64,000 nt of DNA, from NCBI RefSeq assembly GCF_030549525.1, contig NZ_CP130831.1:2381501-2445500 (forward strand). Reading direction: 5' to 3'. The DNA comes from Stenotrophomonas sp. 704A1 (lineage in GTDB: Bacteria; Pseudomonadota; Gammaproteobacteria; Xanthomonadales; Xanthomonadaceae). This document shows, in pieces, positions 1 through 14,550 of the stretch. Below the pieces are notes generated by a model, which saw only the letters and a list, made by a program, of their open reading frames with translations, was not told the DNA's origin and did no database searches. Numbering within the stretch: position 1 is the first letter of the stretch; each line of letters starts with the position of its first letter. The position numbers and the translations under genes are program-made.

Positions 1-103
1 ACGGCATCCGGTCTCGGAAGAGAGATAGCGGTCTGGTTTGCGGCACGTCCGTCAAAGCGCGGGCGGGCGTGGGCTTACTGCGCGCCCACGCTACCGATGA
101 GCG

Positions 104-397
104 CTACTTGGAAGCCGCCCGTTGTTCGCGCAGCCAGGCGAGTGCCGCGGTGCCTAGGGAGGTCGTCGAGATGAGCACGCCGGTGAACTTCTTGCCTGAC
201 GCATCGCGGACCTCACGGCAGTCGAGAAGCCCGTTATCGCAAAGAAATGTCAGGCAATGCTTTACGTCCCGGCTACTTCGCCCGGCAACACGCACGTCCT
301 CGAGAATCATGCCAAGCAACGGCATCCGGAAGATATCCATGAGATCCGCGCAAAGGTACTCGCATGGATCTCTCTGGGAACTGACACGTTCAGCCAT
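104..397 (-). CDS. small winged-helix-like protein coupled to EAL gene (copy 1)
   Basis: Encodes about 97 residues. I do not recognise a named family. The helix SSRDVKHCLTFLCDNGLL followed by a hairpin (VRDASGKKF) and ISTTSLGTAAL looks like a MarR/PadR-style winged helix, so DNA binding is inferred. It is clearly homologous to the protein at 7087-7371: C-x2-L-x3-FR near the start, VR-x-D-x-G(K/N)-x-F in the wing, S-x-T-x-LG at the end. ATG at 397 has a GAGG ribosome site 6 nt upstream and overlaps the stop of the EAL gene by 8 nt, implying translational coupling. An in-frame TTG at 403 is an alternative start. The role is probably to read out or modulate the adjoining EAL protein; this is inference. 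Confidence 0.7.
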   Translation of the reverse strand: MAERVSSQRDPCEYLCADLMDIFRMPLLGMILEDVRVAGRSSRDVKHCLTFLCDNGLLDCREVRDASGKKFTGVLISTTSLGTAALAWLREQRAASK

Positions 398-1214
398 GCT
401 CAACCTCGCGGAGCATCGCCGGGCTGGACGTGCCGAAGCGTTTGAGGAACCGTCCGGGCTCCATGGGTCGCCCGTGCAGATATCCCTGGCTTACATCGCA
501 TCCCAGCGCACGCGCCTGCGCGAGTTGAGCTTCGCGCTCGATGCCCTCGACGACCACATGGAGGCCCAGCGCGTCGGCCATACCGATGACCGCGGCAAAC
601 ACCCGGCGCTCGGTACCATTGGTTTCCAGCTCACGGACGAGCTCGCCCGCGATCTTGAGTTCATGCACCGGCATGGAACGCGGCCGGCCGAGGTTGGAAA
701 ACCCTGTTCCGAAGTCGTCCAGCGACAGGCGGACGCTGAGCCCCATCAGGCAGAACAGGATGCGGCCGCTCGCTTCCATCGTCTGGACGGCCGCGGCTTC
801 GGTAATCTCCAGGGTCAGCTTCTCAGCATTCAAGCGGCCGGCGGTCAGCGCTTCACATACGTGGTCGTAGAGCTCGCGAGCCATCAACTGGATCGGCGAT
901 ACGTTCACAGCCACTCGCCAATGCTCCATTCCAGCCTCGTGCCAAGCGCGCAGATCGCTGCAGGCCTGGTGCAGCACGAACCGTCCAAACTCGTTGATGA
1001 GGCGGCTCCGCTCTGCCAGTGCGATGAACTCAGCGGGTTCGATCAAGCCCAGCTCGGGGTGGCGCCAGCGCAACAGCGCCTCGGCGCTGATCACCCGCTC
1101 ACTCGACAGGTCGTATTGCGGTTGATAGAGGACGCTCAGCTCGCCGTGATGCATGGCGAGCCTTAGGTCCTTGGCGGTGACGCGCTCGAACTGGGGTTCT
1201 GGGTTGCGGTTCAT
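390..1214 (-). CDS. EAL-domain protein 1 (cyclic-di-GMP phosphodiesterase type)
   Basis: A 274-residue stand-alone EAL domain with no sensor or transmembrane segment. EAL proteins hydrolyse cyclic-di-GMP to pGpG. Visible signature residues: EALLRW (Glu45), VNVS, EITE, LDDFGTGFSNL, the Lys of LKIAG, VEGIE and SQGYL. One deviation is LKIA where most active members have LKID. The order of motifs is complete, so it may be active, but that is uncertain. ATG at 1214 has an AGGAAG ribosome site about 7 nt upstream. The gene overlaps the downstream winged-helix-like gene by 8 nt. A broken CadC-like regulator lies upstream on the same strand, as does the intact one before EAL protein 2. Confidence 0.88.
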   Translation of the reverse strand: MNRNPEPQFERVTAKDLRLAMHHGELSVLYQPQYDLSSERVISAEALLRWRHPELGLIEPAEFIALAERSRLINEFGRFVLHQACSDLRAWHEAGMEHWRVAVNVSPIQLMARELYDHVCEALTAGRLNAEKLTLEITEAAAVQTMEASGRILFCLMGLSVRLSLDDFGTGFSNLGRPRSMPVHELKIAGELVRELETNGTERRVFAAVIGMADALGLHVVVEGIEREAQLAQARALGCDVSQGYLHGRPMEPGRFLKRFGTSSPAMLREVEHG

Positions 1215-1262
1215 CAGCAGGCTTCCTGGCGAAGGGCCCGCGTGCCCCGGCCGTCTGCTGAT
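1213..1262 (-). promoter_or_regulatory. inverted repeat covering the EAL1 start codon
   Basis: Arms ATCAGCAG (1213-1220) and CTGCTGAT (1255-1262) pair across 34 nt. In the minus-strand mRNA the distal arm includes the AT of the EAL1 start codon and sits just after its ribosome site. Folding could mask initiation. Only the 8-bp repeat itself is directly visible. Confidence 0.3.
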
Positions 1263-1439
1263 CCTCGGGATCGCCCCGTGGCATCACAGCATGTACGCGA
1301 GGCGCGCCGACCCGAATCGGTGCAACAAAAGGCACATATGTGCGTTCGGGTGGCGCATCCTAGAAAGGCCGGTCAGCGGACGCTTCTATCGCCGGATCAT
1401 TTGTTCTCAACCCTCCTCATTTCCGAATAAACCATTTTC

Positions 1440-2938
1440 TATCAATGGGTTAGAACGCCGCATCTCTTCACCCGCCACATGCGCGGGGGCACGACATCGA
1501 GGCAGGATGGGGACAGCCCGGGCCGGTTTCCGTCGTATTCGTGCAGGGCCGGGAAGACCGCTCTGGATATGGGCAAGGAGCACGTGGCGCTGGGCGTCGA
1601 TGGACCGCGAGCGCTGCTGCGTATCCATTCCCTTCACAATGGCCAGCGCCTGCAGGAACTTGCCCGCTTTTACTGGAAGGTCCGCGTAGGCGAGTCGATA
1701 GGCAGCGTGGTCGGGATACGCTACCGCGAGCTTCCCGAACAATCCGAGCGCTTCCTTGTACCTGAGCGGATCAAGCCTCACGCCTTGGGCATCGAGCAGC
1801 ATCGCAGTCTCCGCAGGAACCGGGACCAACAGCTTTCGGGCGGTGGCGTGATGCTCGATGGCGGATACGGTGCGCGGGATGCGGGATTGCGCATCCGCAA
1901 GCTGAACAAGCATCGGACCGAAGCGAGGGGCGGCATCGACAATCTGCTCGCCGATCATACTGACCGCCAGCCAGTCCTGTGCCTGATAGCAACGCACAGC
2001 ATCCACGTACTGTTGCGCGCTGGCGGGATCGAGTTCCAATGCCGGCCAGACATCCTTTCCTCGAGGAAGCAGGTCCACCAGCACGTCCCTGGATACGCGA
2101 TCAACCATCGCAGGAAGCTCTTCCGGTGCTCCGGACTGCTCTACCAACCTGTCGGTGCCGCCTTGCTGGATTCGCGCTCGAACCGTGATCTGACCGTCCT
2201 GCGTGCGAAACGTACTTGGGAGTACGACCTTGGGGCTTCCTGTGGACCCGGTACTCGCGAGGTCCGCCGCGCTCGACAGCACACTGACCTGGCTCAAGGT
2301 CCCCGACCGCCACGAAGCAGCAGCACCGCGACCAGGAGACAACCGAGCACGGCGATAGACAAGAGAAACACGGCTCGCCATCGCGATGCGACCACCAGCG
2401 CCCATGAATCGTGGCGCATCGTGGGCGTCATCCTTTGATTCACGCGCACGCGGGCAACGTCGTCGTCTGTATCCAACTGCGAAGCCTCTTGCGCGCCCCC
2501 CTGCTCCGGGGCGGTACGCCCGGCATCGGGTGACGGAGCCGGGGGCTCGGCGGCCTCTTCGGCTGCAGGAATGTCGGTCGCTGCCCGGGCTGTCGCGGCG
2601 GGCGCCCATGACAACGCGCCTGGCGGCTTGAAAACGTAGCCACGCTTGGCAATAGTCCAGATCCAGTCACGGCGCGAAGGGCTCAATGCCTTTCGGAGCA
2701 GCCACATGCTTTGCGACAGGTTTGCGTCGTCCACGACTAAGCCCGTCCACGGCCGATCAAACAGCGCAGCCCTCGTATGCAGCTTGTCGGGCTCATTTAG
2801 CAACAGGAGCAGGAGATCAAACACTCGCTGCTGAAGCTCGACGCTATCCCCGGGCGATGTGACCCGCCGACAGCGAAGATCCACTGTCAGATCTCCGATG
2901 TTCAGAAACTGTGCGTCCTTGGGCCACGAATACATCAA
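1440..2938 (-). pseudogene. decayed CadC/ToxR-like membrane regulator
   Basis: The first frame (2938 to 2294) has an OmpR/ToxR-type winged helix (about residues 12-107, with LVVDDANLSQSMWLLRKAL and TIAKRGYVF), a proline/alanine-rich linker and a transmembrane segment near residues 189-207, then a stop. Homology resumes in another frame from about 2290 (TVRARIQQGG, VWPALELD, APRFGPMLVQLADAQS), matching the TPR-like part of the intact paralogue at 8821-11673. Alignment by eye shows an internal deletion after the membrane segment that shifts the frame. Some 500 C-terminal residues are missing. Similarity fades near 1540, so the left boundary is approximate. A truncated DNA-binding membrane protein of 214 residues could still be made. 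Confidence 0.75.
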
Positions 2939-2986
2939 ACGTACTCCCCTTAGTGGTCGACCTTCCTGGATTGATAGGGGCGATAC

Positions 2987-3370
2987 TCATGCAGGCCTAG
3001 TTCCGTTCTTGCCTGCGATGAGTACCTTCTGACGTCCCGCACGCCACTGCAGACGAGCGCGCGCGCGCTCGACATGGGCGAGCAAGTCGTCGCCCAAGGT
3101 ACCCCCCAAGCCCCTGGCCACACATTCCCACCGCCCTAACTCCACCCATCTCAAGTACCGAACGTACACGGATCTCGACGTCCCCACCGGGTGATGGACG
3201 TCAGACCAAGTCGCATTGTTCTGCACAACCCAGAGGACGGTATCCACAAACTGCCGGTACTCAGCCTCTCTTTTTGTGACTCGCGTCACGAGATTCGCCG
3301 GTAGATGGCGCTTGATGTCGCTCCATTGTTGGTCACTTGTCCGGGCTCCCGGCGCAGCATGATTGGTCAT
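2987..3370 (-). CDS. transposase N-terminal-domain-like protein (DUF4096 type), stand-alone
   Basis: A 127-residue protein resembling the N-terminal domain of IS5/IS4-group transposases: WSDIKRHLP, then FVDTVLWVVQNNATWSDV, then YVRYLRWVELGRWE. No DDE catalytic domain follows and no terminal inverted repeats were found, so it is either a remnant or a domesticated DNA-binding protein. It starts at ATG 3370 without a clear ribosome site and lies upstream of the broken CadC-like gene on the same strand. Confidence 0.6.
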   Translation of the reverse strand: MTNHAAPGARTSDQQWSDIKRHLPANLVTRVTKREAEYRQFVDTVLWVVQNNATWSDVHHPVGTSRSVYVRYLRWVELGRWECVARGLGGTLGDDLLAHVERARARLQWRAGRQKVLIAGKNGTRPA

Positions 3371-3879
3371 AGGTTCAACATGAGGAAGGGCCCAGGGATG
3401 CCCGGCGAAAACTTAAGCCGGCCTTTTCCGGGCGCGGCCGAGGCGGCAAGTATGGAGCGTGCCGAAAGGCACTCTTCTGCATTTCCCTCACTTGTTCTCA
3501 TTTCTTGTCTCAGAACTAGCCGCCGAGCTTCCAACATCCGGCATGCGGGATCCTGAGCCGCCTTGAAGTGTGGCTCAGCCCACTCCGGTGGGTGGCAAGA
3601 GAGAAGAATTCAGTTTGATTGATTTGCGATGTTGCCAGCTGCCCAACTAGGCTCTTTCCATGCTGAACGCAGCTGGACGTGAGCAAGCAGCGACCTAAGG
3701 GTCCAACAGCTTCGGGCAACACGTTCGCCGTGCGGAGCCTCCCGCCTGGCGTCCGAGCGAGCGTCGGTACCCCTGCCGCGCTCGAGCGCGCCCGTGCTGC
3801 CTACCCTGCAGTGGCGGGCGTGTACCAATGGTTCGGGCGTGCCCCTCGACAGAACCGTCGCTTCGCATGGAAGGCGACA

Positions 3880-3906
3880 GTGGAGGGATTACCTCCACTT
3901 TTCTTT
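3880..3906 (+). terminator. intrinsic terminator 1
   Basis: A perfect 7-bp stem GTGGAGG / CCTCCAC with loop GATTA is followed directly by TTTTCTTT. This is a textbook rho-independent terminator for plus-strand transcription, although no plus-strand gene is evident upstream. Confidence 0.65.
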
Positions 3907-3907
3907 A

Positions 3908-3946
3908 CTGGCACGGCGGGTCCTATCCGCTGTGCCAGCATTTTAT
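3908..3946 (+). terminator. intrinsic terminator 2 (tandem)
   Basis: A 12-bp stem CTGGCACGGCGG / CCGCTGTGCCAG with one G-U pair and a 7-nt loop is followed by CATTTTATG. It lies two bases after the first terminator, so the two form a tandem pair. Confidence 0.5.
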
Positions 3947-4525
3947 GCGTCATCTTCGGTAACGTGGCGGAGGATGGCTTTCTGGCGGCGCTGTACACAA
4001 TTTTGTTACCGACGACCTTGTTTGCCGCTGAGCATTCTCCACGCGCATTGCTGGAAGTTCTTGAGTGGAGGGCGGTGGACAACCTGTCCTTCACACTCGC
4101 GAACGCTTGCACAGAGGGCGTCAGCACGGCCCAGCTCGGCCCGATCAATTCTGATCCTGCAAGGATGCCATGCGAGCCACTAGGGGGGTATTTGCTCTAT
4201 AGCTCGGACATGGCGAGGCAGTGCGTGCCTCAGAAACCGGTGTCCTCGAAGCGGCACAGAAGGTCATGATGTCGCAACGGGGCTAGATGTTGCGTCTGCG
4301 ACGAGCCGAATGGCGCTCTCAATCCCGCTGTCGCACCATCCCTTTGTCAGGTGCTTCGCTCTGGGCCTCTGTTGACGAAATTCGACCAGCAGAGAAACTG
4401 ATCGACCGAGGCGATCTCTGAAGGCGATGGATAAGCTCCCCACCTCTCCGTAGTAAGCGCTGTGAGCGAATGAAGGCGCCCTTCGCCAAGGGCGGGAGGG
4501 TCAGGCGATGGACGCGGGAGCAAGC

Positions 4526-6499
4526 TCAGTGGGGTGTGAATTGGATACGCGCCTCGAAGGCTCTTCGCACCTGCTGGAATAGAGCACGAAAAGATGGATA
4601 GTCCTTGGGCTCGCAAAGTGCGTCGGTACCACGAATAGCGTATTCTTCCAGGCGATGATCCGCCGTAACAGTTTGACCTTTCTGGCGCCACTCAACGCTG
4701 TATCGGCCAGCCGCGTTGCTGTAGATGATGTCTTTCGGTATCTCGGCAATCTTTACAGTGGCCGGAAAATCAAGTGAGTAACGCTCTTCACGTACACGGG
4801 GAACACATCGGAATGGAGCGAAGTTGTCAGGTTTCGGCGTTCCAAGAACGGCATCACGGATGGATTCCAGGGCGAACGCGGGTGGCAAGGCACTGGAGCC
4901 AGGACGTGTGAAGTCGAGATGTTGCTGCGCATTGACTGTCACCCTGAAGCCAAGTGGCTTTGTCAGATCTTGGGGCTCAGCATCGAAGGACATTTGGCCT
5001 ACACCCTCCATTCCCGCGTCGACAATCATTCTCGCTACCGCGGCACCGCGCTCCTGGGTCGGCATCCCAGCAAGGGACCTGCGCATTTGAGCCTCTTGAT
5101 CAGCGCTTGGGTCAAAGCGGGTGGACACAGTTACATCCCCGCCGTCTGCATATCTGTACTCGGTGTAGCTTCGCTGGCGATTGCCGGAGGCTTCCAGCGC
5201 TGGGGTACGCGATAACACGCCATCGACTGTGTGAACCACCGGCCGCCCACGGACCGAACCCGGAAGCTCACCCAAGCGATGGAACTCCGCTGTTGGATCT
5301 GTATACAAGTCGAGCGCAGGCACGTATAGGATGACGTGATCGAAATGGCCCGCCACGGGAAGAAGCGGAAGAGTAGGCCCTGCGCGCATGCCCACCAGCA
5401 CCGGAGTGCTATCGATACCCTTTGCTGCAAGAAGTGCCTGCAGCAGAGCAACCTTGTCCTTGCAATCACCAAACCCTCGTTCGAGCACCTTCGTGGCCGC
5501 GTTGGGCTCTACTCCGCCATTGCCCAAGTACACCGCGACATAGCGGATGTTGGCCGTAACCCAGTGATGCAGCGCTTCTGCCTGATCGCGCGGTTCTTGT
5601 AACCCTTCAGTCAAGCGCTCTGCCAACGCGGAAATAGCATGAGTGACATTCGCAGCTGCTGCGGCATTGCGATGATAAGCGCGCCCGACTTGCCCCCAAT
5701 CGCTGAAGTTGCTGGCCAGGATGGCCGGACCGAAGGCACCCGCAGGTGGCATTATGGAGGGCTTGGGCAGTGGCGTGAGATTTCGATGCTCCCATACCCA
5801 CTGATCCATACCATTCGATCGGGAGTGACTTAGACCGACGGCGTCTCGCAGCCGGACGTCCAACGCCATCGACTCCGGCGCTTTGATAGTAACGCGCGCT
5901 TCCCGGATGGTTGTGTGGGGGTTAACGACCTGAAGCAGACTGGCGTAACCGTCGAACAAGGGCTTGATCTGTGTAATGCGCGTCTTGCGTACGAGTGTCG
6001 CGCCCTTGCTTAGGCGCGGGTACACGATCACCAGGGCCCTGCCGTCGGCGTGACTGGCCGAGGCTCCACCATTATGTTGCTGTCGTGTATAAATACTCTC
6101 CTTCGGTACGTCATGACGATTTCCCGCGGGATCCAGCACGTAGGCTTCAAATACCTCCACCGACTGGCGTCCCTCAACGTAATCGATAGCCTCTTGGCTC
6201 ATCGCCTCCACGGCGACCTGGCTATGAAGCAGTAGCGATCTTTCTTCCACGGAAACGGCGCTTCCGTCTGCGCGGAATTCTCTGGTGATGTGCGAGCGGA
6301 CCACTTCAAAATCTGGCCGCCCCCCCGCCCCGGTTAAGGGTGTTGCAGCGGACACCGCTTGGCTGATGAGAATTAAACCAAGGCCGAGCGCGGGGACAGA
6401 CAGAGGCGTTGTAACCGAAGATCGAGTGAAAGGGAGAGCAATTTCTTCTGCAGAATTGAACATGGAAGCATCCTGTTTTGACTTGACCGGGCGTGTCAT
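4526..6499 (-). CDS. exported DUF3857/transglutaminase-like protein
   Basis: A 657-residue exported protein. ATG at 6499 is chosen because AGGAGG lies 7 nt upstream; a hydrophobic segment (PALGLGLILISQAVSA, about residues 37-52) then acts as signal or anchor. The middle third is a DUF3857 domain. It is followed by a transglutaminase-like core with FGDCKDKVALLQALL (Cys346), HFDHVILYV (His388) and YTDPTA (Asp401), so the papain-type triad is present. Such proteins occur widely in Gram-negative bacteria without a settled substrate; protease or cross-linking activity in the periplasm is inferred. It stands alone between gene-poor stretches and probably forms its own transcription unit. Confidence 0.85.
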   Translation of the reverse strand: MTRPVKSKQDASMFNSAEEIALPFTRSSVTTPLSVPALGLGLILISQAVSAATPLTGAGGRPDFEVVRSHITREFRADGSAVSVEERSLLLHSQVAVEAMSQEAIDYVEGRQSVEVFEAYVLDPAGNRHDVPKESIYTRQQHNGGASASHADGRALVIVYPRLSKGATLVRKTRITQIKPLFDGYASLLQVVNPHTTIREARVTIKAPESMALDVRLRDAVGLSHSRSNGMDQWVWEHRNLTPLPKPSIMPPAGAFGPAILASNFSDWGQVGRAYHRNAAAAANVTHAISALAERLTEGLQEPRDQAEALHHWVTANIRYVAVYLGNGGVEPNAATKVLERGFGDCKDKVALLQALLAAKGIDSTPVLVGMRAGPTLPLLPVAGHFDHVILYVPALDLYTDPTAEFHRLGELPGSVRGRPVVHTVDGVLSRTPALEASGNRQRSYTEYRYADGGDVTVSTRFDPSADQEAQMRRSLAGMPTQERGAAVARMIVDAGMEGVGQMSFDAEPQDLTKPLGFRVTVNAQQHLDFTRPGSSALPPAFALESIRDAVLGTPKPDNFAPFRCVPRVREERYSLDFPATVKIAEIPKDIIYSNAAGRYSVEWRQKGQTVTADHRLEEYAIRGTDALCEPKDYPSFRALFQQVRRAFEARIQFTPH

Positions 6500-6512
6500 G
6501 TGCGACCCTCCT

Positions 6513-7086
6513 GGTATCGAATTGCACCGTGACACTAGCGTCTCGCTCCCGCCGGCTGCGACGGCGCTGAGCGTGGTCGGCCTGCTCGTGTGGTGCCTGC
6601 AGGAACCTTCTTGGTGCCGAACGTGAAGCTACGACCAGGACGAAGGCTGACGCTTGACCTTCTTCATTGCAGTTCGTTCGTGCGAACCTAGGCAAGCTGA
6701 TATGTTTTGATGCTCATCAGCGGTAGAGCGGAGGCGCATCCCCATAACCCTGCGAAGCGCTTGTGAAATGAGCGCCGAGCGCTCTGGGAGCCTGTCGGAA
6801 GCGCTCGATGGCACCCGCCTCTCCTTTTTTCCGTTCGGCCGTCGCAAGCTACAGCTACGCCTCATAGCAGTTCTGCTGGTGATGGATGTTCAGGTGTGAG
6901 GACAGTGCGGTTGGTGATCGACGCATGTACTGCGTCAGCCGATGGCGCGTTTACATCCACCGAGCCTTCCATCATTCGTGATCGTTCTATCAGGGGTGCC
7001 CTCTGACGCAGCCTAGATGCCTACTTTCTCTGCAATCGAGCGGCTTTCTAGATGTACCCACGCCCCAGATGCCCGTCGTAGCGGAC
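6513..7086. other. gene-poor region, about 570 bp
   Basis: It lies between the transglutaminase gene's ribosome site and the end of the second winged-helix-like gene. Frames up to 129 residues exist but show no domain, signal peptide or homology to neighbours. I see no clear promoter, hairpin or repeat. Confidence 0.5.
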
Positions 7087-7371
7087 TCATCCACTGTCGC
7101 GGGCATACTGGCGATCCAATGCCTCTAGCACGGAGTGTCCCAGCGGTGTCAGCGACACCCCCCAACCGCCGAAGCGGTTGCCTTCTTTGTCGCAAAGCAC
7201 CCTGACTTGCAGCCATTGCAGCCGTCGCATCTGGTGAAACTCGTTGCGGATCTCTTGCGACGCGTACGGGGTAAACGTGAGCCGGGCCAACCGGACCCCG
7301 GGTCTGGCTGTCCGGAAATGGCGCAGCAGTTGATGGCAAAGCGCGGGCGGTGCCCATACCTGGTCATCCAA
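7087..7371 (-). CDS. small winged-helix-like protein coupled to EAL gene (copy 2)
   Basis: Encodes about 94 residues homologous to the product of 104-397. The pattern VSLTPLGHSVLEALDRQ is typical of the end of a MarR/PadR winged helix, and the wing reads CDKEGNRFGG. Start TTG at 7371 is chosen because it reproduces both the length of copy 1 and its exact 8-nt overlap with the EAL stop. Longer starts at 7419 or 7512 would overlap the EAL gene much more. The shared overlap argues that the EAL and winged-helix genes are a co-translated pair. DNA binding and a link to cyclic-di-GMP signalling are inferred. Confidence 0.7.
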   Translation of the reverse strand: MDDQVWAPPALCHQLLRHFRTARPGVRLARLTFTPYASQEIRNEFHQMRRLQWLQVRVLCDKEGNRFGGWGVSLTPLGHSVLEALDRQYARDSG

Positions 7372-8209
7372 AGGCCACCGCCTGACGGCTGTCCGCCACG
7401 GTCTCAGCGCAAGTGGCATGCGATCCGAAGCGTGCCAGGAAGCGGTCGCCGCTGGTTGGTGGCGCGTGCAGATAGCCTTGGGTCTCGTTGCAGCCAAGTC
7501 GCTCCAGGACACACAGCTGAGACTCGCGCTCTACGCCTTCGGCCACCACCCGCAGCCCCAAGGTCGAGGCCATGGCGACGATGGCCTCGATGATCGAAGC
7601 GTCAATCTGGTTACGGTCGACGTCGCTGACAAAGGAACGATCAATCTTCAGCTCATGCACGCGCAACTGCTTCAGCCGTGCCAAGTTGGAAAAGCCGACC
7701 CCGAAGTCGTCCAAGGATATCCTGACACCTGCGGAGCGCAGCATGAGCAACTGGCTTTGGGCTGTGCCTGCACTTTCGATCATGTGTGATTCGGTGATTT
7801 CCAGGATCAGCCGGTGTGCCGGCATGCACTGCTGGGTCAGGCAATCGAGCACCCGCTGAGCGAAATCTGCACGTTGCAGTTGCAGCGGGGAAACGTTTAC
7901 GGCCACCGACCAGCCGAGGTTACCTGCCGCCCTCCACTGCCGCAGTTGGCGGCAGGCCGCCTTCAGCACCCAATGACCGAGACGATGGATTGCACCGCAC
8001 TGTTCGGCAAGCGGGATGAACCGATCCGGCGGTACCAAGCCCATCCGAGGGTCCTGCCAGCGCACCAGGGCTTCCGCGCCGACCACAAGGCCGCTGCCGC
8101 ATTGCAGTTTCGGCTGATACAGCAGGGTCAGCTGATCGTTGTCCACTGCCCGCATCAGGTCTTCTACTGTGACGGTTATGTGACCGGAGGCGACTGGAAG
8201 GCTCGACAT
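7364..8209 (-). CDS. EAL-domain protein 2 (probable active cyclic-di-GMP phosphodiesterase)
   Basis: A 281-residue stand-alone EAL protein with a full catalytic set: EALVRW, VNVS, LEITES, LDDFGVGFSNL, LKIDRSF, VVAEGVE and TQGYL. It should hydrolyse cyclic-di-GMP. ATG at 8209 is preferred (GGAG 7 nt upstream). The frame stays open upstream to a TTG at 8278, but that part would be encoded by a leader shared with EAL gene 3 and lies inside the palindrome at 8261-8306. The downstream winged-helix-like gene overlaps by 8 nt. Upstream on the same strand are a small unknown gene and the CadC/TPR regulator, so a four-gene operon is possible. Confidence 0.9.
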   Translation of the reverse strand: MSSLPVASGHITVTVEDLMRAVDNDQLTLLYQPKLQCGSGLVVGAEALVRWQDPRMGLVPPDRFIPLAEQCGAIHRLGHWVLKAACRQLRQWRAAGNLGWSVAVNVSPLQLQRADFAQRVLDCLTQQCMPAHRLILEITESHMIESAGTAQSQLLMLRSAGVRISLDDFGVGFSNLARLKQLRVHELKIDRSFVSDVDRNQIDASIIEAIVAMASTLGLRVVAEGVERESQLCVLERLGCNETQGYLHAPPTSGDRFLARFGSHATCAETVADSRQAVAFG

Positions 8210-8260
8210 GGTTAGGCTCCAACGGGGAGCGGCCATGCTGGAGAGCGCGCGCCCACCAAG

Positions 8261-8306
8261 CTTCTTGCTGGGGCTCAATTGATATCAATTGAGCCCCAGC
8301 AAGAAG
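8261..8306. repeat. perfect 46-bp palindrome in the EAL2 leader
   Basis: Two 23-base arms (8261-8283 and 8284-8306) are exact reverse complements with no spacer, centred on GATATC. It lies between the small gene ending at 8323 and the EAL2 start at 8209. As DNA it could be an operator or cruciform; as RNA it forms a very stable hairpin. No T-tract follows, so a simple terminator is unlikely. Its core, TTGATATCAATTGAG, recurs at the matching place before EAL gene 3. Confidence 0.9.
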
Positions 8307-8322
8307 GGTCAGGCGGGCCTGT

Positions 8323-8739
8323 TCAGCGCATGCCCTCGCCGGCGCATCGTCCGTTCTGCCAGAGCTTCGGTGGGGTCGCATGCAGTGCGGGGAAGGCAAC
8401 GCCCTCCGGTACTACCCTGCCCTCTCGCACGATGGTGCCGTGGCCGCCGTCGTCCAATGCGGGGCACGGCCCCAAGGCCTGCCGTGTTGGGGGGCGCGCG
8501 ATCAAGAGTTCTCGCTTCTGCAACAGTCGCGGGACATCCTGACCGGGTGGCAACCGGGCCAAGGGAGGGCGCTGCAACGGCTTCAACTGTGTTGGCGGCG
8601 ACATGGCCACAGGGGATTGGGCCTGAGGGGGCGGCAAGTCTTCTGGTGACTGCAGGGTAAGCGGCCAACCCGGCAGCCAGAGTGAAACATTCAACGCCAC
8701 TGCGGCTAGACTGATCTGTAAGCTCATGCGGTTGTCCAT
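8323..8739 (-). CDS. small hypothetical protein, possibly exported
   Basis: About 138 residues, of no family I recognise. The N-terminus has a hydrophobic stretch (SLQISLAAVALNVSLWLPGW) followed by a proline-rich region. The start is uncertain: ATG 8739 or ATG 8727, and a TTG at 8769 is also in frame. It lies 81 bp after the CadC/TPR gene and just before the 46-bp palindrome, all on the minus strand. An overlapping frame of similar length exists, so the coding call itself is tentative. Confidence 0.4.
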   Translation of the reverse strand: MDNRMSLQISLAAVALNVSLWLPGWPLTLQSPEDLPPPQAQSPVAMSPPTQLKPLQRPPLARLPPGQDVPRLLQKRELLIARPPTRQALGPCPALDDGGHGTIVREGRVVPEGVAFPALHATPPKLWQNGRCAGEGMR

Positions 8740-8820
8740 TCCACGCGCGGACGCACGTAATGAGCCCAAGGGTGAACCGGGATGGCCAGATTAGCGTCTA
8801 GCGACGCTTCATTTTTTTCT

Positions 8821-11673
8821 CTATTTGCCCCTCCCGGCTCGTTCATGGCTTGACAACCACGCCATCGTCGCACCAGGCAGGGCTGCGTGCCGAGCCTTGA
8901 CGCGGCCCACGTCGGCGCCCAGCGAGGGTTGCGCCGAAGGCGGCAATAGGCTGAGTACCTGCAACTGGGTCCGCAAGTCGCCTTCGCTAGCTGCTTGCCT
9001 GTAGAGCTGCCTAGCCCGTTCAATGGCTTCCGCGGGACGAGCATGACGCTCTGCATCGGCAACCTGCAACAGGTCAAGGCGATGCCGCAACTCTGCCTCG
9101 GCTGCAGGCAGTAGATTACGCGCACTGGCCGCCTGACTACGGCTGGCTTCCCAGTTGCCTTGGGCGGCACTGATCTCCGCGTCGAGCACGATCAGGGATG
9201 CGCGCATCAGCGGTACCAGGCCACCTTGCTGAGCCGACGCCCGCAGTGCGCTGGCATGGCGCTCGGCGGCTTGGATGTCCCCTAGGCGAAGGGCGATCGT
9301 GGCCATCCGCAGGCGTTCGCCACCCAGTGAATGGTTGCCTAGGATTTTTGCTCTGTCGGCGCCGTCGATCAAAGCACGTGCCCCCTCATAATGTTGCCGG
9401 GCTTCGGCGCGGTCGTGGACAAGCAGCGCAACCAATGCCTGCGACGACGCGGCCGTGAATCGGGAGATCACGTCGTCCGCGCGTGTGCAGGCCTCCGTCG
9501 TACTGGCTTCTGGTGCCACCCCCATGTAGGTCGACACGCGCAAGTTCTGACACGCGACCTGAACCTGGGTGTTGCTGGCCTCCGCACTGGTCTCGCGCGC
9601 CGCCATCAGCGCAAGCTTGCTGGTCTGGCCCGCATCACGCAGCCGACCCTGCGCTTCGAAGATGCGCGCCAGCGCGACATTCACCCGGATCCCAGCAACC
9701 CCCTGCAGCCCCAGCGCCTGTAGCTGCGTTGCCCGTGATTGGGCTTCCGCAAGCCGAAGCTGGAACAGGTCGTCCATTGCCAGTTCCACCTCGAATTGGC
9801 CCTGCATGTTCAGGTTGCCCAGTTTGCGGGCTGTCTGAAGTGCCTCCCGTACCCAATGCAGCCGTCCCTCGGTGGAGGGGCTCAGACCCGCAAGGGTGAC
9901 TTGAATGTTCGCGACCAGAAGTAGGTTTCCCGCACGCTCGGCCCGATGCATCGCCCCCTCGATCATCTTTGAGTCACGCGCAACCTGACCCGCGTGCACG
10001 GTCGCCAATACATCAGCGTATTCGGCATGCTCTACCGCCCCAGCGCTCTTAAACTTTTGCGCGGCCATCCGATAGGCCTGCTCACCCTGCGCTGGGTCCA
10101 CGGTTGCGACAATGTTGGCTTCAAGCAGGGTTGCCTGAGCCGCCTGCAGGCGCATGCCCGCGCTGGTAGCGATCTCACGGGCGGACCCTGCGGCACGTTT
10201 TGCCTGATCGAACTGCGCCTTTCCGTAATAGGCATTGCCATACAGCAGCGCCCGCTGATAACGGGCATCCACGCTTGCATCTTCAGTGCGCTGGGTACTT
10301 TCGAGGTAGCTGATCGCCGTATCGAACTTGCCGGTGCGGATCAACAGGCGTGCGTATCGCAGCTGGTAAGGCAAATGATTCGGGTGTGCGGCGAGCAGTT
10401 GCTGTACTGCCCTCTCGGCATCCGCTGCACGCCTCTGATCCATTTCCAGTTGCATCGCGCGCAGAGACAGGCGTCCTGTGTCGGGCAGTGGGAGCAGCAG
10501 GGTGTTGGCGAGCTCCATATGTCGGACAGATTCCAGGCTCTCGCCGAGCTCTGATTGTGCAACCGCCAATTGCACATGCATTAGCCCGAAACGCGGCGCT
10601 TGGGTCAGAATAGCTCTGGCACCTTGTTGCACGGCACTCCAGTCGCCGCGCTCGTAAGCAGCAGCGACGCTCGCGTAACGTTGTGCCGTAGTGCCATCCA
10701 CCTCCAGCGAAGGCCAGGCGTCTTCCACATCTGGTGCCAGCAATCTCACCAGTTGACGCGAGAGTTCGTCGATGGCCGCAGGTGCAGCGCTTAGCGGAAC
10801 CGCCTTCTCAAGCACCTGGTCCCGGCCTTGTCGCTGCACGCGCACCCGTAGCGTGACCCGCTCTCCGTCGGCGCTGCGGGTGGCGCTCAAAAGAGCGACA
10901 CTGAGCGCTGCGCCGCGCCTGTTGGCGAGTACTTCTTCGCCTTTCAACAGCTGTATGTCTGGAAGCTGCTGCAGCTTCCAACCTGTCCAGTGCCGAAGCA
11001 GCTCGGCAGCCCAGGGTGCGTCGGCCTCGCTTCGGGTGGGCACCGTCACCAGCGCAACGGAAACCGGTTCGCTTGCACGCGGCCAGAATGCCCACAGCGC
11101 CATCGCGACAGCAACCAACATCAATGCGGCAACTGCAACCATACCGGGCGACCGCCGACGGGCGGCGGGAGGCGCCCCGGCCGGAGACGGGATGCTGGCT
11201 TCTGGCCCAGATTCCCGGCCGGCCTGTGGCTGTTCGTCCAGTTGCGGGTCCTGTAAGGGAGTAGCCTCCTCGGTCGCACCATCCGCCGATACTGGCGGCG
11301 CCGCTGATGCCTCCATGTGCTGAGCCGGCATCGCATCGAGCCACTGAACCGGCCCAGGTGGATGGAATACATAGCCACGTTTGGCGATGGTACGGATCCA
11401 CCCGCGGCGGGATTCTCCCAAGGCCTTGCGCAGTAGCCAGATGCTCTGGGACAGGTTTGCATCATCAACTACCAACCCGGCCCAAAGGCGATCGAACAGT
11501 TCCTGGCGAGTGAAGAGCTTGTCCGGCTCGGAAATCAGCAGCAACAACAGCTCGAAGATGCGTTGCTGTACTTCGACGCTCCCGCTGTCAGTGATCAGTC
11601 GTCGGTAGCGCAGGTCGATCAGCAGGTCGCCAATCCGCAGGCCCTGCGCGCCCACAGGCCATGGAGCGCTCAT
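8821..11673 (-). CDS. CadC/ToxR-like membrane regulator with large TPR-like periplasmic domain
   Basis: A 950-residue protein. Residues about 12-105 are an OmpR/ToxR-type winged helix (DANLSQSIWLLRKAL, TIAKRGYVF). They are followed by a Pro/Ala/Glu-rich linker, one transmembrane helix at about 178-197, and roughly 750 residues rich in alanine and leucine helices of TPR type. This is the one-component architecture of CadC: DNA binding in the cytoplasm and sensing in the periplasm. The ligand is unknown. It is the intact paralogue of the broken gene at 1440-2938, and both lie upstream of EAL/winged-helix pairs, so control of those genes is a reasonable inference. Confidence 0.85.
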   Translation of the reverse strand: MSAPWPVGAQGLRIGDLLIDLRYRRLITDSGSVEVQQRIFELLLLLISEPDKLFTRQELFDRLWAGLVVDDANLSQSIWLLRKALGESRRGWIRTIAKRGYVFHPPGPVQWLDAMPAQHMEASAAPPVSADGATEEATPLQDPQLDEQPQAGRESGPEASIPSPAGAPPAARRRSPGMVAVAALMLVAVAMALWAFWPRASEPVSVALVTVPTRSEADAPWAAELLRHWTGWKLQQLPDIQLLKGEEVLANRRGAALSVALLSATRSADGERVTLRVRVQRQGRDQVLEKAVPLSAAPAAIDELSRQLVRLLAPDVEDAWPSLEVDGTTAQRYASVAAAYERGDWSAVQQGARAILTQAPRFGLMHVQLAVAQSELGESLESVRHMELANTLLLPLPDTGRLSLRAMQLEMDQRRAADAERAVQQLLAAHPNHLPYQLRYARLLIRTGKFDTAISYLESTQRTEDASVDARYQRALLYGNAYYGKAQFDQAKRAAGSAREIATSAGMRLQAAQATLLEANIVATVDPAQGEQAYRMAAQKFKSAGAVEHAEYADVLATVHAGQVARDSKMIEGAMHRAERAGNLLLVANIQVTLAGLSPSTEGRLHWVREALQTARKLGNLNMQGQFEVELAMDDLFQLRLAEAQSRATQLQALGLQGVAGIRVNVALARIFEAQGRLRDAGQTSKLALMAARETSAEASNTQVQVACQNLRVSTYMGVAPEASTTEACTRADDVISRFTAASSQALVALLVHDRAEARQHYEGARALIDGADRAKILGNHSLGGERLRMATIALRLGDIQAAERHASALRASAQQGGLVPLMRASLIVLDAEISAAQGNWEASRSQAASARNLLPAAEAELRHRLDLLQVADAERHARPAEAIERARQLYRQAASEGDLRTQLQVLSLLPPSAQPSLGADVGRVKARHAALPGATMAWLSSHERAGRGK

Positions 11674-12463
11674 TGGAACCCACCCCTGCGGCAGGACAAT
11701 ATGGAAAACGCTGCGATCAAACAGAACTCTCCTTGCGGGTCAGACAGAACGCGCCGCCCCTTCACGGGGTGGTGCCAGCGCGCACAATGTGAGGCCGAAG
11801 ACGGGTTCCATGCAACACCAGCATTGGAAAGCCCCAAGTTCCCAAGGAGGGGTAGTTGTCGCCAGAAATGTACGCCACTTGGTAAGTATATGAATGAAGC
11901 AGGCTGCCTGGGTTTCAGGTGCCTACGTGAAACCCGCCTCAACCCTTTGGCCCAGCTGCGCTTCATATTCCGTCGCCGCTCTCCCTGTTCGAATGGCGGC
12001 ACGCGAGAGGGGCGTCTGGATGGGTGGGGGCTGGCATCAGGGTCAATCACCTCAGCTACTGTCCGCTCATGGAGCCGGACTAGCATGCGGTGCCGTGGAC
12101 AGCACTCACAGGCTGCCGGCCCGGGTGAAGCGCCGGGCGTTCTGATTTCCCTTGACAGAGAACCCCAAGTACCCGTTTGCCCCATTCAGGATCATTGCCA
12201 GGCCGGTTGCAGCGCGGCGCGTGCTGCTTGCTGCAAGAAAGCGGATTCAGGTGGGCCGGATCCGAGGGTACAGCGGTAGGCTGCCGCGACAGTGATGCGC
12301 TCCATCCAAGCATCCCAAGAGATGGCAATGCCACGCGCCGGGAGCCTCAGGTGGGGCAGCTTGGAGATTCTGGACAGGCGGGAAACAGGACCACTGATGC
12401 CTTTGAGCGCAGCCGCCCGCTTGCTCTCAGGACCAGGGCGAGCGCGGTACCGGAGTGGCCTCT
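11674..12463. other. gene-poor region, about 790 bp
   Basis: It separates the CadC/TPR gene from EAL gene 3. A minus frame of 171 residues (11670-12185) and shorter ones show no domain or signal. Unlike EAL genes 1 and 2, no third copy of the winged-helix-like gene was found after the EAL3 stop in any frame I read. It presumably holds the CadC/TPR promoter. Confidence 0.5.
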
Positions 12464-13306
12464 TTACCCAAATGCCATCTCCTTCACAGCCGGCGAATCG
12501 TCCACGATGAACGGGGAACCCTTGGACCCGAACCTACGCAGGAACAATCTGCCGCCCATGCAGGGGGAATGGAGCCAACCCTGGCTCTGGTCGCACGCGA
12601 GGAGCTCGATCGCACGGAGTTGTTCGGGGCGATCAACACCTTCAGCCACAACTTTCACCCCAAGAATTGCCCCAAGGGTGACGATGGCTGACACGATGTC
12701 AGAGTCCACCGGATCGGTATCCACCTTGGCGACGAATACCCGGTCGATCTTTATCTCATTCAGAGGAAGGCGCTTGAGCCGCCCGAGGCTGGGGAGCTCA
12801 CTGCCGAAACTGCGGAGGGCGATCTGAACGCCGTCGGCGAACAGGTCAGACAACGCGCCGCAGCCATCGTTGATCGGTGACATCAAGCAGGACAGGGAGA
12901 CGTACAGGGTCAACTTTTCTGCCGCAATATTGTTGCGATCCAGCGCATCGCGTACCTGTCCGCAAAAGCCACGGTGCAGGAGCTGAACTGGCGAGATGTT
13001 GACGCCAATCGACCAGTCCGGGTTGCCGCTGTTGTGCCACTCCCGCAGCTGGCTACGGGCGCGGTTGAGCACCCATCGCCCTAGCCGATGGATGAGCCCC
13101 GCCTGTTCAGCAAGTTCGATGAAGTGGCTTGGAGCGAGGAGGCCCCGCTGCGGGTGCTGCCAGCGGACCATTGCCTCGGCGCCGACCACCTGTCGGCTGC
13201 CGCATTCGACTTTGGGCTGGTACAGCACCACCAGCTCGTCATTGTCCATCGCCCGAATCAGCTCTTCGGGTGCAAGCGGGACACGGTCGAGGTCAGGTGC
13301 GAGCAT
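12464..13306 (-). CDS. degenerate EAL-domain protein 3
   Basis: About 280 residues and closely related to EAL protein 2 (MDNDELVVLYQPKVECGS matches MDNDQLTLLYQPK-like sequence). Catalytic motifs are eroded: EAM replaces EAL, the EITE glutamates are gone (LTLYVSLS), and DDFGTG is replaced by RSFGSE. VNIS, IKIDRVF, VVAEGVD and SQGWL remain. It is therefore probably unable to hydrolyse cyclic-di-GMP, though it may bind it or a partner. ATG 13306 (GGAG 8 nt upstream) aligns with the EAL2 start; the frame is open back to a TTG at 13384. No small coupled gene follows. Confidence 0.82.
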   Translation of the reverse strand: MLAPDLDRVPLAPEELIRAMDNDELVVLYQPKVECGSRQVVGAEAMVRWQHPQRGLLAPSHFIELAEQAGLIHRLGRWVLNRARSQLREWHNSGNPDWSIGVNISPVQLLHRGFCGQVRDALDRNNIAAEKLTLYVSLSCLMSPINDGCGALSDLFADGVQIALRSFGSELPSLGRLKRLPLNEIKIDRVFVAKVDTDPVDSDIVSAIVTLGAILGVKVVAEGVDRPEQLRAIELLACDQSQGWLHSPCMGGRLFLRRFGSKGSPFIVDDSPAVKEMAFG

Positions 13307-13373
13307 CCTGGCAACTCCGAGGGAGCTGCCATGCTGCGAAAGCAGTGCCGGGTCAGCTTCTGCGGCGCCCTCA

Positions 13374-13385
13374 ATTGATATCAAT
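13374..13385. promoter_or_regulatory. TTGATATCAA palindrome in the EAL3 leader
   Basis: ATTGATATCAAT is a perfect 12-bp palindrome lying about 70-80 nt before the EAL3 start, the same place as the core of the 46-bp palindrome before EAL2. The sequence between palindrome and start is also partly conserved (CAGCATGGC, GCTCCC, GGAG). The rest of 13307-13670 contains no gene I can support. Confidence 0.5.
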
Positions 13386-13670
13386 CCATCTCTCGAGTCG
13401 CTCTACCGGCCCTCTCGGGCCCCTTCCGCACGCCGCACGGCTGCTAGAGCTTCGATGGCGTGGCTGCAAGCGTGGGCGGGCCGTTGATAAGCATCGCCTT
13501 GCAATTTCGTGCCGGCTGGGGTTGGCGGGCACGCCCCGATCACGGTCCAGCTGCATTCATATTCGACTGCAAGGACCAGTCGACTGCCCACCCTCGATAA
13601 ACATTCCTTATCGCCACTTCCAGAATGGTGCGCCGCGGCTCACGGCCTGATGTGTGTCGAAACCGCAATC

Positions 13671-14381
13671 CTATTGGGAGGCCGGAGCAGGCGTCACACC
13701 CCTTCGCATAATCTCCAACCTCCCAACATCACCAACAGCCACAAGCACAGCAGCTTCCCGCGCCGGGTCCCACAGCGCATAGCTATCACCAAGGCGGCCT
13801 ACCAGGCTCAAGCCGCCCTGAACGCTTCCATCAACAATCACAGTGGTCACGTACTTGCCGGCGCCTGAGGAGATCGTCCTGGCACGCTCGGATCCAAGCC
13901 AACTCGAAGCAATCGAGACGTAGACCAGCATCACCATGGCGTAGATCAGCCATGGGGAATCTTTCACGGCGGTCGGTATCACTGGCGAGAGATGCACGGC
14001 CAGCGCACATATGATCGTCAGGAAAAGTCCTATCAGCACAGGCCACGCGTTCGACCACCAAAGCAACGCGCCCAGCCCAGTGAAGAAGATCGTGGGGCCC
14101 AGCCAGGCGAACCGCTTGCTTTTGGAGGACGCGCTCGTCAGCTTTACTTCCACCCAGCCGCTAAACAGCAAAGCCACCAGCATGAGAAACAACACCATGC
14201 CGATGCCTGCCAAGCCGGCCAGGGCCAGTTCGCTCACGGCAACGAACTGAAAGGGATCCAGGCCAAAGTGGCCCCAGTACGCCTTCAGATAGAGCGAGCC
14301 CTGAGTCAGGCCAAACGTGACGACAGCCGAACCCCATCCAGCAACATCGGCCATCGTCAGTGTCTTCTTCGTACGCTCCAT
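13671..14381 (-). CDS. inner-membrane protein of unknown function
   Basis: A 236-residue protein with about five hydrophobic segments in the first two thirds (for example LALAGLAGIGMVLFLMLVAL and VLIGLFLTIICALAVHL) and a soluble C-terminal tail. ATG 14381 is chosen over upstream in-frame codons because a GGGGG-type ribosome site precedes it. I do not recognise a family. It is isolated, with the TPR gene diverging at 14551. Confidence 0.7.
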   Translation of the reverse strand: MERTKKTLTMADVAGWGSAVVTFGLTQGSLYLKAYWGHFGLDPFQFVAVSELALAGLAGIGMVLFLMLVALLFSGWVEVKLTSASSKSKRFAWLGPTIFFTGLGALLWWSNAWPVLIGLFLTIICALAVHLSPVIPTAVKDSPWLIYAMVMLVYVSIASSWLGSERARTISSGAGKYVTTVIVDGSVQGGLSLVGRLGDSYALWDPAREAAVLVAVGDVGRLEIMRRGVTPAPASQ

Positions 14382-14550
14382 GTATCCCCCTTCAATCGAT
14401 GCAGCCCCGCCACATAGTGACATGCAGCGCTCTACCTCGCAGAATCCAACCCCATTAACGTGACGCGTCACGCCCAATCGCCCTCACCCCATTGGCGCCC
14501 CACCTTTCGCCCTCTATAGTGCCAACCCTCACAAGGACGAGACGGCACAC

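What the first reader, a model, noticed from the sequence alone, without database searches (positions are those of the whole stretch)
104..8209. Repeated EAL / winged-helix gene pair with identical 8-nt overlap
Two separate EAL genes (390-1214 and 7364-8209) are each followed by a homologous protein of 94-97 residues whose start overlaps the EAL stop by exactly 8 nt. The small protein looks like a minimal winged helix. A coupled phosphodiesterase plus tiny DNA-binding protein is not a standard cyclic-di-GMP architecture I know. It suggests a module in which the EAL protein senses the nucleotide and the partner acts on DNA.
Basis: partly seen in the sequence, partly recalled or inferred. Interest (0 to 1): 0.75.

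Follow-up and report, generated by a model that had tools for sequence, protein, structure and literature searches.

The report
Adhesin-locus EAL/winged-helix control cassette
Next to genes for surface adhesins, some relatives of this bacterium carry a small control cassette in which a cyclic-di-GMP enzyme gene runs straight into a gene for a tiny DNA-binding-type protein, probably a local switch for sticking to surfaces.

Summary
The pair is real. Two EAL genes (390-1214, 7364-8209, minus strand) each overlap by 8 nt a gene for a homologous 94-97 aa protein. A structure model of the first small protein is a winged helix (mean pLDDT 81); its nearest solved folds are PadR/HxlR/MarR-type regulators. 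The same pair with the same 8-nt overlap occurs in three other species of the genus (5 of 5 pairs). Two further homologues of the small protein have no EAL gene nearby.

A surface adhesin follows in 3 of 5 cassettes. A third EAL gene in the window (12464-13306) has lost catalytic residues, and its small gene is a 14-codon stub.

The best reading is a dedicated adhesin-control cassette that works like known EAL/transcription-factor pairs (E. coli BluF-BluR, PdeR-MlrA; Klebsiella FimK): a new variant of a known kind. DNA binding, EAL-partner contact, direction of control and enzyme activity are inferred, not shown.

The parts
104..397 (-). S1: 97-aa winged-helix protein, ATG start, overlaps EAL1 by 8 nt
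   Evidence: model
390..1214 (-). EAL1: stand-alone EAL protein, eight catalytic residues kept
   Evidence: PF00563 221 bits; residue table
1382..1417 (-). DNA element upstream of EAL1 (one mismatch to the cassette pattern)
   Evidence: nhmmer E 7e-6, 0.008 with the short profile
1557..2938 (-). CadC1: broken CadC-like gene (winged-helix part 2606-2926; TPR part 1557-2312 in another frame; C-terminal part not found)
   Evidence: tblastn pieces; Pfam
2987..3370 (-). Putative transposase piece, IS4/5 type (DUF4096)
3475..3513 (-). Probable DNA element copy between the DUF3857 gene and CadC1
   Evidence: PWM 29.0, 0 of 300 shuffles; nhmmer E 0.0067 and 7.5 with the short profile
4526..6535 (-). 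DUF3857/transglutaminase-core protein; a relative in G034 lies upstream of that cassette's CadC gene
7087..7371 (-). S2: 94-aa small protein, TTG start, overlaps EAL2 by 8 nt
7364..8209 (-). EAL2: stand-alone EAL protein, eight catalytic residues kept
   Evidence: PF00563 246 bits
8261..8306 (-). DNA element upstream of EAL2; here a perfect 46-bp palindrome (23-nt arms)
8323..8769 (-). SP: short protein with a hydrophobic N-terminal part and conserved tail (about FPALxxTPPKLWxxGRCAGEGMR)
8821..11673 (-). CadC2: Trans_reg_C winged helix, hydrophobic segment near residues 178-196, TPRs
   Evidence: Pfam; hydropathy
12427..12471 (-). S3: stub of a small gene (14 codons then stop) in the same 8-nt overlap context
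12464..13306 (-). EAL3: EAL protein with three catalytic positions lost (open frame from 13384; ATG at 13306 is my choice of start)
13354..13396 (-). DNA element upstream of EAL3

Best explanation
The pair is the output end of a dedicated control cassette for surface adhesins: CadC-like membrane regulator, exported-type protein SP, DNA element, EAL protein, winged-helix protein S, then an adhesin. Proposed mechanism: the membrane regulator, perhaps with SP, reads an envelope signal and turns on the EAL-S pair from the repeat element. S, made by coupled translation with EAL, is a PadR-like DNA-binding regulator. EAL binds S and releases or inhibits it depending on c-di-GMP, as trigger phosphodiesterases do, and in degenerate copies by binding alone. 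Together they set transcription of the adhesin downstream. Shown: gene order, the 8-nt overlaps, the fold prediction, the shared element, and adhesin neighbours in 3 of 5 cassettes. Inferred: EAL-S contact, DNA binding by S, who reads the element, the role of SP, and the direction of control.
For: 5 of 5 EAL-linked S genes have the same 8-nt overlap. S1 models as a winged helix; the 50 rows shown of 981 fold matches are, by title or recalled, winged-helix regulators or other DNA-binding or transcription proteins, one designed entry (7xup) not being recognisable by title. CadC precedes EAL in 5 of 5 cassettes (broken in cassette 1) and SP in 4 of 5. Strong SP matches (E 5e-22 or better) occur in 4 of 91 genus genomes, the same 4 that hold an EAL-S pair. 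Downstream of S: a YadA-type autotransporter in the own genome (stalk, head, anchor) and a YadA-stalk protein in G085 (Pfam); a fimbrial operon in G034 (by eye). The element lies upstream of all 7 EAL genes seen in these loci. Its pattern gives 8 matches in 91 genomes: 7 at cassettes or a cassette remnant, 1 elsewhere, 0 for the reversed pattern. Weaker copies lie before the adhesins of G085 and G034 (0 of 300 shuffles each).
Against: No copy of the element before the window organism's own autotransporter (297 of 300 shuffles score as well). No adhesin recognised after the G021 pair (by eye; no autotransporter or usher match in that locus), and S2 is followed by the DUF3857 gene. The weaker element copies have whole-set E-values of 0.25 and 3.2. 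Two S homologues have no EAL (G048, G141). The best fold match has E 3.5e-3 and none reaches 1e-3. G048 has S but no element match, so the element may belong to CadC and not to S. No experiment bears on any step.
Confidence: 0.5

Rival explanations
1. CadC alone reads the repeat element and controls the cassette. EAL just lowers c-di-GMP, and S regulates only its own or unrelated genes; EAL and S do not touch each other.
For: The element has TTGA repeats 10 nt apart, as bound by OmpR/PhoB-type winged helices (recalled), and CadC has such a domain (PF00486). G048 and G141 have S without EAL or CadC in the 18 kb around, and G048 has no element match. Four of six EALs keep the catalytic residues.
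Against: The strict overlap of EAL and S in 5 of 5 pairs, and loss of S where EAL3 is degenerate, suggest a joint function; but G021 keeps S with a degenerate EAL. The regions upstream of four CadC genes lack the element (216, 84, 117 and 272 of 300 shuffles as good), though one lies upstream of broken CadC1.
Confidence: 0.25
2. S is a winged helix used for protein contact: a subunit that tunes the EAL enzyme and does not bind DNA.
For: Overlapping genes fit a stoichiometric complex. S1 is acid-base balanced (pI 7.6) and the G021 protein nearly so (8.1).
Against: S2, G034 and G085 proteins are basic (pI 9.8, 10.8, 11.0). Nearest folds are DNA-binding regulators. S homologues exist without EAL.
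Confidence: 0.13
3. Decaying accessory island: the pair is inherited by descent from an old cassette and now has little function here.
For: In the window CadC1 is broken, a transposase piece lies beside it, EAL3 lost catalytic residues and S3 is a 14-codon stub. G021 holds an SP-tail remnant with the element. The EAL-S pair was found in only 4 of 91 genus genomes.
Against: EAL1, EAL2, S1, S2 and the 1561-aa adhesin are open frames. The five EAL-linked small proteins keep shared positions at 24-46% identity.
Confidence: 0.1

Closest known systems
BluF-BluR of E. coli (EAL antirepressor and MerR-type repressor)
   Same: EAL gene followed on the same strand by the gene of a DNA-binding regulator; the EAL may be degenerate and acts by direct contact; biofilm-modulating output encoded nearby (PMC3509220, abstract and passages).
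   Different: BluF has a BLUF light sensor and BluR is MerR-like. The genes are 204 nt apart and have their own transcription starts; here they overlap by 8 nt and the partner is PadR-like by fold. No CadC, SP or adhesin gene among the features of that stretch.
Trigger phosphodiesterases PdeR (with MlrA) and PdeL of E. coli
   Same: An EAL protein controls transcription by contact with a transcription factor or DNA, set by c-di-GMP (PMC5052742, passages).
   Different: PdeR is multidomain (recalled); PdeL carries its own LuxR-type HTH. Here the EAL is alone and the winged helix is a separate gene.
FimK / Fim2K of Klebsiella fimbrial operons
   Same: EAL protein in an adhesin operon, in FimK joined to a DNA-binding domain (PMC9487511 and PMC3419637, passages).
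   Different: FimK is one fused protein and Fim2K lacks the HTH; both belong to the fimbrial operon itself, not to a CadC-SP-EAL-S cassette upstream of it.
MrkJ-MrkH-MrkI of Klebsiella type 3 fimbriae
   Same: Dedicated EAL-type enzyme and regulators control one fimbria (PMC9487511, passages).
   Different: MrkH itself binds c-di-GMP and is the main activator; nothing in the passages speaks of a partner gene overlapping the phosphodiesterase gene.
DUF2513 (Pfam PF10711)
   Same: The S homologue of G141 matches it weakly (20.9 bits, E 4.6e-4).
   Different: Below the curated cut-off of 29.6, and 1 of 7 members matches.

Membership tests
EAL domain (PF00563) | Profile match over curated cut-off | tested here: met
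   221, 246 and 205 bits against cut-off 31.3 for EAL1, EAL2, EAL3
Active EAL phosphodiesterase | Conserved E, N, E, D, D, K, E, Q residues (residue roles recalled) | tested here: met
   All eight kept in EAL1, EAL2, G034, G085; not met in EAL3 (Y, R, S at three positions) and G021 (Q, A, D)
Active EAL phosphodiesterase | c-di-GMP hydrolysis | not testable with these tools
   needs an enzyme assay
Winged-helix regulator (PadR/HxlR/MarR-like) | Fold H-E-(H)-H-E-E-H with wing | tested here: met
   S1 model H11-22 E27-30 H42-54 E58-64 E70-78 H80-96, mean pLDDT 81.4; top three matches are PadR structures, prob 1.00, query TM 0.55-0.61, E 3.5e-3 to 4.2e-3. S2 was not modelled.
PadR family | Sequence profile match | tested here: not met
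   No PadR hit in Pfam for 7 of 7 small proteins or in NCBIfam for the 6 of 7 scanned
DUF2513 | Profile match over curated cut-off | tested here: not met
   1 of 7 members, 20.9 bits against 29.6
Trigger phosphodiesterase / EAL antirepressor | Direct contact of EAL with a transcription factor or DNA | not testable with these tools
   only gene coupling seen
CadC/ToxR-like regulator | Cytoplasmic Trans_reg_C winged helix, single TM, periplasmic part | tested here: met
   PF00486 42 bits in CadC2, strongest hydrophobic stretch 178-196, TPRs after it; topology inferred
c-di-GMP riboswitch | Rfam match near the EAL genes | tested here: not met
   Only two matches with E up to 1 in window 1-14500, both far below their gathering scores and not riboswitches; other loci not searched

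The most novel reading that the evidence does not exclude
A transferable four-part switch (membrane CadC-TPR sensor, exported SP, EAL protein, overlapping PadR-like partner) that plugs in front of unrelated adhesin types and marks its targets with one shared repeat operator, with the EAL protein acting as the nucleotide-sensing subunit of the winged helix whether or not it is still an enzyme.
Probability: 0.3. Interest if true: 0.65.

Novelty: new variant of a known kind. Interest (0 to 1): 0.5.

Why it matters
If right, it is a compact, separable version of the EAL/transcription-factor switches described for enteric bacteria. It comes in intact, degenerate and partner-less forms within one genus, so one could test how an EAL enzyme becomes a pure regulator. 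It would also tie local c-di-GMP signalling to named adhesin types in a genus where each of the 91 genomes searched has several EAL proteins.

Tried and rejected
Rejected: (1) Recent tandem duplication: EAL1 and EAL2 are 42% and S1 and S2 26% identical, so the copies are old. (2) c-di-GMP riboswitch between SP and EAL: no Rfam support in window 1-14500. (3) Phage or plasmid origin of S: no match by tblastn with the G085 protein in 72,556 plasmid records or with S2 in 50,697 phage records; of 48 viral stretches that matched a pattern none was confirmed. (4) A special meaning of the 8-nt overlap: taken as ordinary (recalled) and shared by descent; the one E. coli stretch looked at had no 8-nt case among three overlaps. 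(5) Weak hits dropped from counts: G046 (E 0.007, in a 974-aa frame antisense to another long frame), G788 (20.2 bits over 28 positions in a 791-aa frame; not opened), SP hits in G011 and G048 (E 0.003; the G011 locus showed no cassette gene by eye; the G048 hit was not opened), G394 (frame with four stops; no cassette gene by eye), element match in G075 (one mismatch; no cassette gene by eye in the 3-kb locus), and the EAL of G022 (a 313-aa frame that by eye comes from a frame-broken larger protein).

Led nowhere: the genome-contig scan with three S sequences had 192 pattern matches and one confirmed locus, the same contig as G085 by length and match. PDB sequence search gave three hits, none better than E 0.19. 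A first element search used a spacing one base too long and returned one other place with two mismatches. The genus name was not established: 24-kb stretches gave no match among phages, and 70 plasmid records, of which 5 were shown, 4 of them labelled UvrA.

Limits: the family and class searches scored only 10 to 13 candidates per genome and drew only part of each group, so absence there is soft; known carriers such as G034 and G085 do not appear among their matches. The shuffles are single-base shuffles. Fimbrial genes of G034 and G048 were named by eye. The EAL list was cut.
Full report
What is there. The window is bases 2381501-2445500 of a single-contig genome of 4,686,432 bases with 17 EAL matches. 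S2 starts with TTG. The longer frame of EAL2 that begins at 8278 is probably not used, because a conserved element covers that start. A third EAL gene, EAL3 (stop at 12464), ends in the same sequence context, but its small frame stops after 14 codons. The genus name was not established here.

Small protein family. S1 and S2 are hard to link directly (28%, E 0.8). Relatives in other genomes bridge them. Seven proteins in six genomes form the family: S1, S2, G021, G034, G085, G048, G141. In the genus, 6 of 91 genomes matched at E <= 0.01; I dropped one of them, G046, as chance. In the family 3 of 395 genomes matched: G000, G021 and G141. In the class 2 of 369 matched: G000 and G788, the latter dropped. 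Five of the seven overlap an EAL gene by exactly 8 nt. G048 (beside a fimbrial operon, by eye) and G141 (another genus) show no EAL, CadC or SP match in the 18 kb taken around them. All seven were scanned with Pfam and six of seven with NCBIfam and PHROGs: no match over a Pfam or NCBIfam cut-off, and the best PHROG E-value is 0.16. The nearest family is DUF2513, for G141 only (20.9 bits, cut-off 29.6).

Fold. A model of S1 from a five-row alignment has mean pLDDT 81.4, pTM 0.66 and the order helix, strand, helix, two-stranded wing, helix; residues 1-9 are not modelled well. Foldseek against the PDB gives 981 matches at E <= 10 and none at 1e-3. The first rows are PadR regulators (E 3.5e-3 to 4.2e-3, prob 1.00, query TM 0.55-0.61); the other rows of the 50 shown are PadR, HxlR/MarR, RTP and similar proteins, classed by title or recall. 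This supports a winged helix, not membership of the PadR family.

EAL proteins. EAL1, EAL2 and those of G034 and G085 keep all eight residues checked; EAL3 and G021 each lost three. EAL3 is closest to the G021 EAL (62%). In a search of 91 genus genomes with EAL2, 91 have EAL matches at E <= 1e-52. Among the matches listed (the list was cut), those in frames of 297-319 aa are the cassette EALs and one frame-broken gene in G022; the rest lie in frames of 630 aa or more.

The wider cassette. Upstream of EAL lies SP, a short protein with a hydrophobic start and a conserved tail, and before it a CadC-like regulator with a winged helix, a hydrophobic segment and TPRs. CadC is present in 5 of 5 cassettes, broken in cassette 1; SP in 4 of 5. 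In the genus search SP matches strongly in 4 of 91 genomes, the same 4 that hold an EAL-S pair; two more genomes match at E 0.003 and were dropped. A second, short match in G021 is a cassette remnant. Downstream of S is a 1561-aa autotransporter with YadA stalk, head and anchor in the own genome, just before the window, and a 1725-aa protein with YadA stalk in G085 (Pfam; 39% identical over 522 columns). In G034 it is a pilin-chaperone-usher-adhesin operon (by eye). After the G021 pair no adhesin was recognised, and S2 is followed by the DUF3857 gene. That DUF3857/transglutaminase gene lies upstream of CadC in cassette 1, and a relative lies so in G034.

DNA element. The interval before EAL carries a conserved motif, about GAGAACAATTGAnAnCAATTGAGGCCGGnGCAGAAGTCG, with TTGA units 10 nt apart. 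A profile from six sites also found sites not used to build it: before EAL1 (E 7e-6), before a second degenerate EAL in G021 (E 8e-10), and between the DUF3857 gene and CadC1 (E 0.007). A pattern with at most one mismatch gave 8 matches in 91 genomes: 4 in the own genome (3 sites, one palindromic and so counted on both strands), 2 in G021, 1 in G085, and 1 in G075 away from any cassette; the reversed pattern gave none. G034 has a one-base insertion in its site and is not matched. With a matrix from seven sites I tested 18 segments. Five intervals beat all 300 shuffles: before the adhesins of G085 and G034, before the DUF3857 genes of G034 and the window, and before CadC1; the held-out EAL site of G034 did too. 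Not so: the interval before the own autotransporter (297 of 300), the regions before four CadC genes (216, 84, 117, 272), the CadC-to-SP gaps (15, 16, 4, 62), the two G048 intervals (57, 95) and a control inside an usher gene (119). The scores of the adhesin and DUF3857 intervals (11.6 to 20.7) are well below those of the EAL sites left out one at a time (31 to 49). With the short profile over all loci the weak sites have E-values of 0.25 to 7.5, and the window's DUF3857 site is not listed at all. These copies are suggestive only.

Mechanism. The overlap of EAL and S suggests joint production and probably contact. The best model is an EAL protein that binds and releases a winged-helix regulator, next to an adhesin and under a membrane-bound CadC-like regulator. 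Which protein reads the element is open. The 10-nt repeats fit CadC (recalled habits of that family), and G048, which has S but no CadC cassette, lacks the element. Partner loss in EAL3 fits a coupled system in decay, but G021 shows that a degenerate EAL can keep its S.

Comparison with print. Direct contact between EAL proteins and transcription regulators is described for BluF-BluR and PdeR-MlrA (PMC3509220 and PMC5052742, abstract and passages). An HTH-EAL fusion and EAL genes in fimbrial operons are described for FimK and Fim2K (PMC9487511 and PMC3419637, passages). In Stenotrophomonas the EAL response regulator BsmR is described (PMC5498567, passages). My searches for this arrangement found no paper on it (listings only, except the papers named; some searches were for known systems). 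The library is partial, so this is not proof of absence.

Verdict. Observation confirmed.

Noticed in passing
window 8261-8306: The element before EAL2 is a perfect 46-bp palindrome (23-nt arms); the other copies do not look palindromic at this length (by eye).
   Followed up: partly
L023 (JAHREJ010000049.1): A public record titled Bacillus subtilis SK7B5 carries this cassette; its contig length (32971) equals that of G085 contig 49, which genome search puts in the window's genus, so the title looks wrong.
   Followed up: no
L031 8490-8640 (G021): Remnant of a second cassette: SP tail, element and EAL start context without a full EAL gene, near a response-regulator/sensor-like pair (by eye).
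   Followed up: partly
L019 2735-3724 (G021): A further degenerate EAL gene (26-31% to the others) upstream of CadC, with the element before it and no small gene seen after it.
   Followed up: partly
L018 2462-8498 and L008 1414-1770 (G048): Small winged-helix homologue without EAL, convergent with and next to a chaperone-usher operon (by eye).
   Followed up: partly
window 2987-3370: IS4/5-type transposase piece between the DUF3857 gene and the broken CadC1.
   Followed up: no
L066 2839-5042 (G022): A larger protein with an EAL domain appears frame-broken, leaving a 313-aa EAL frame.
   Followed up: no
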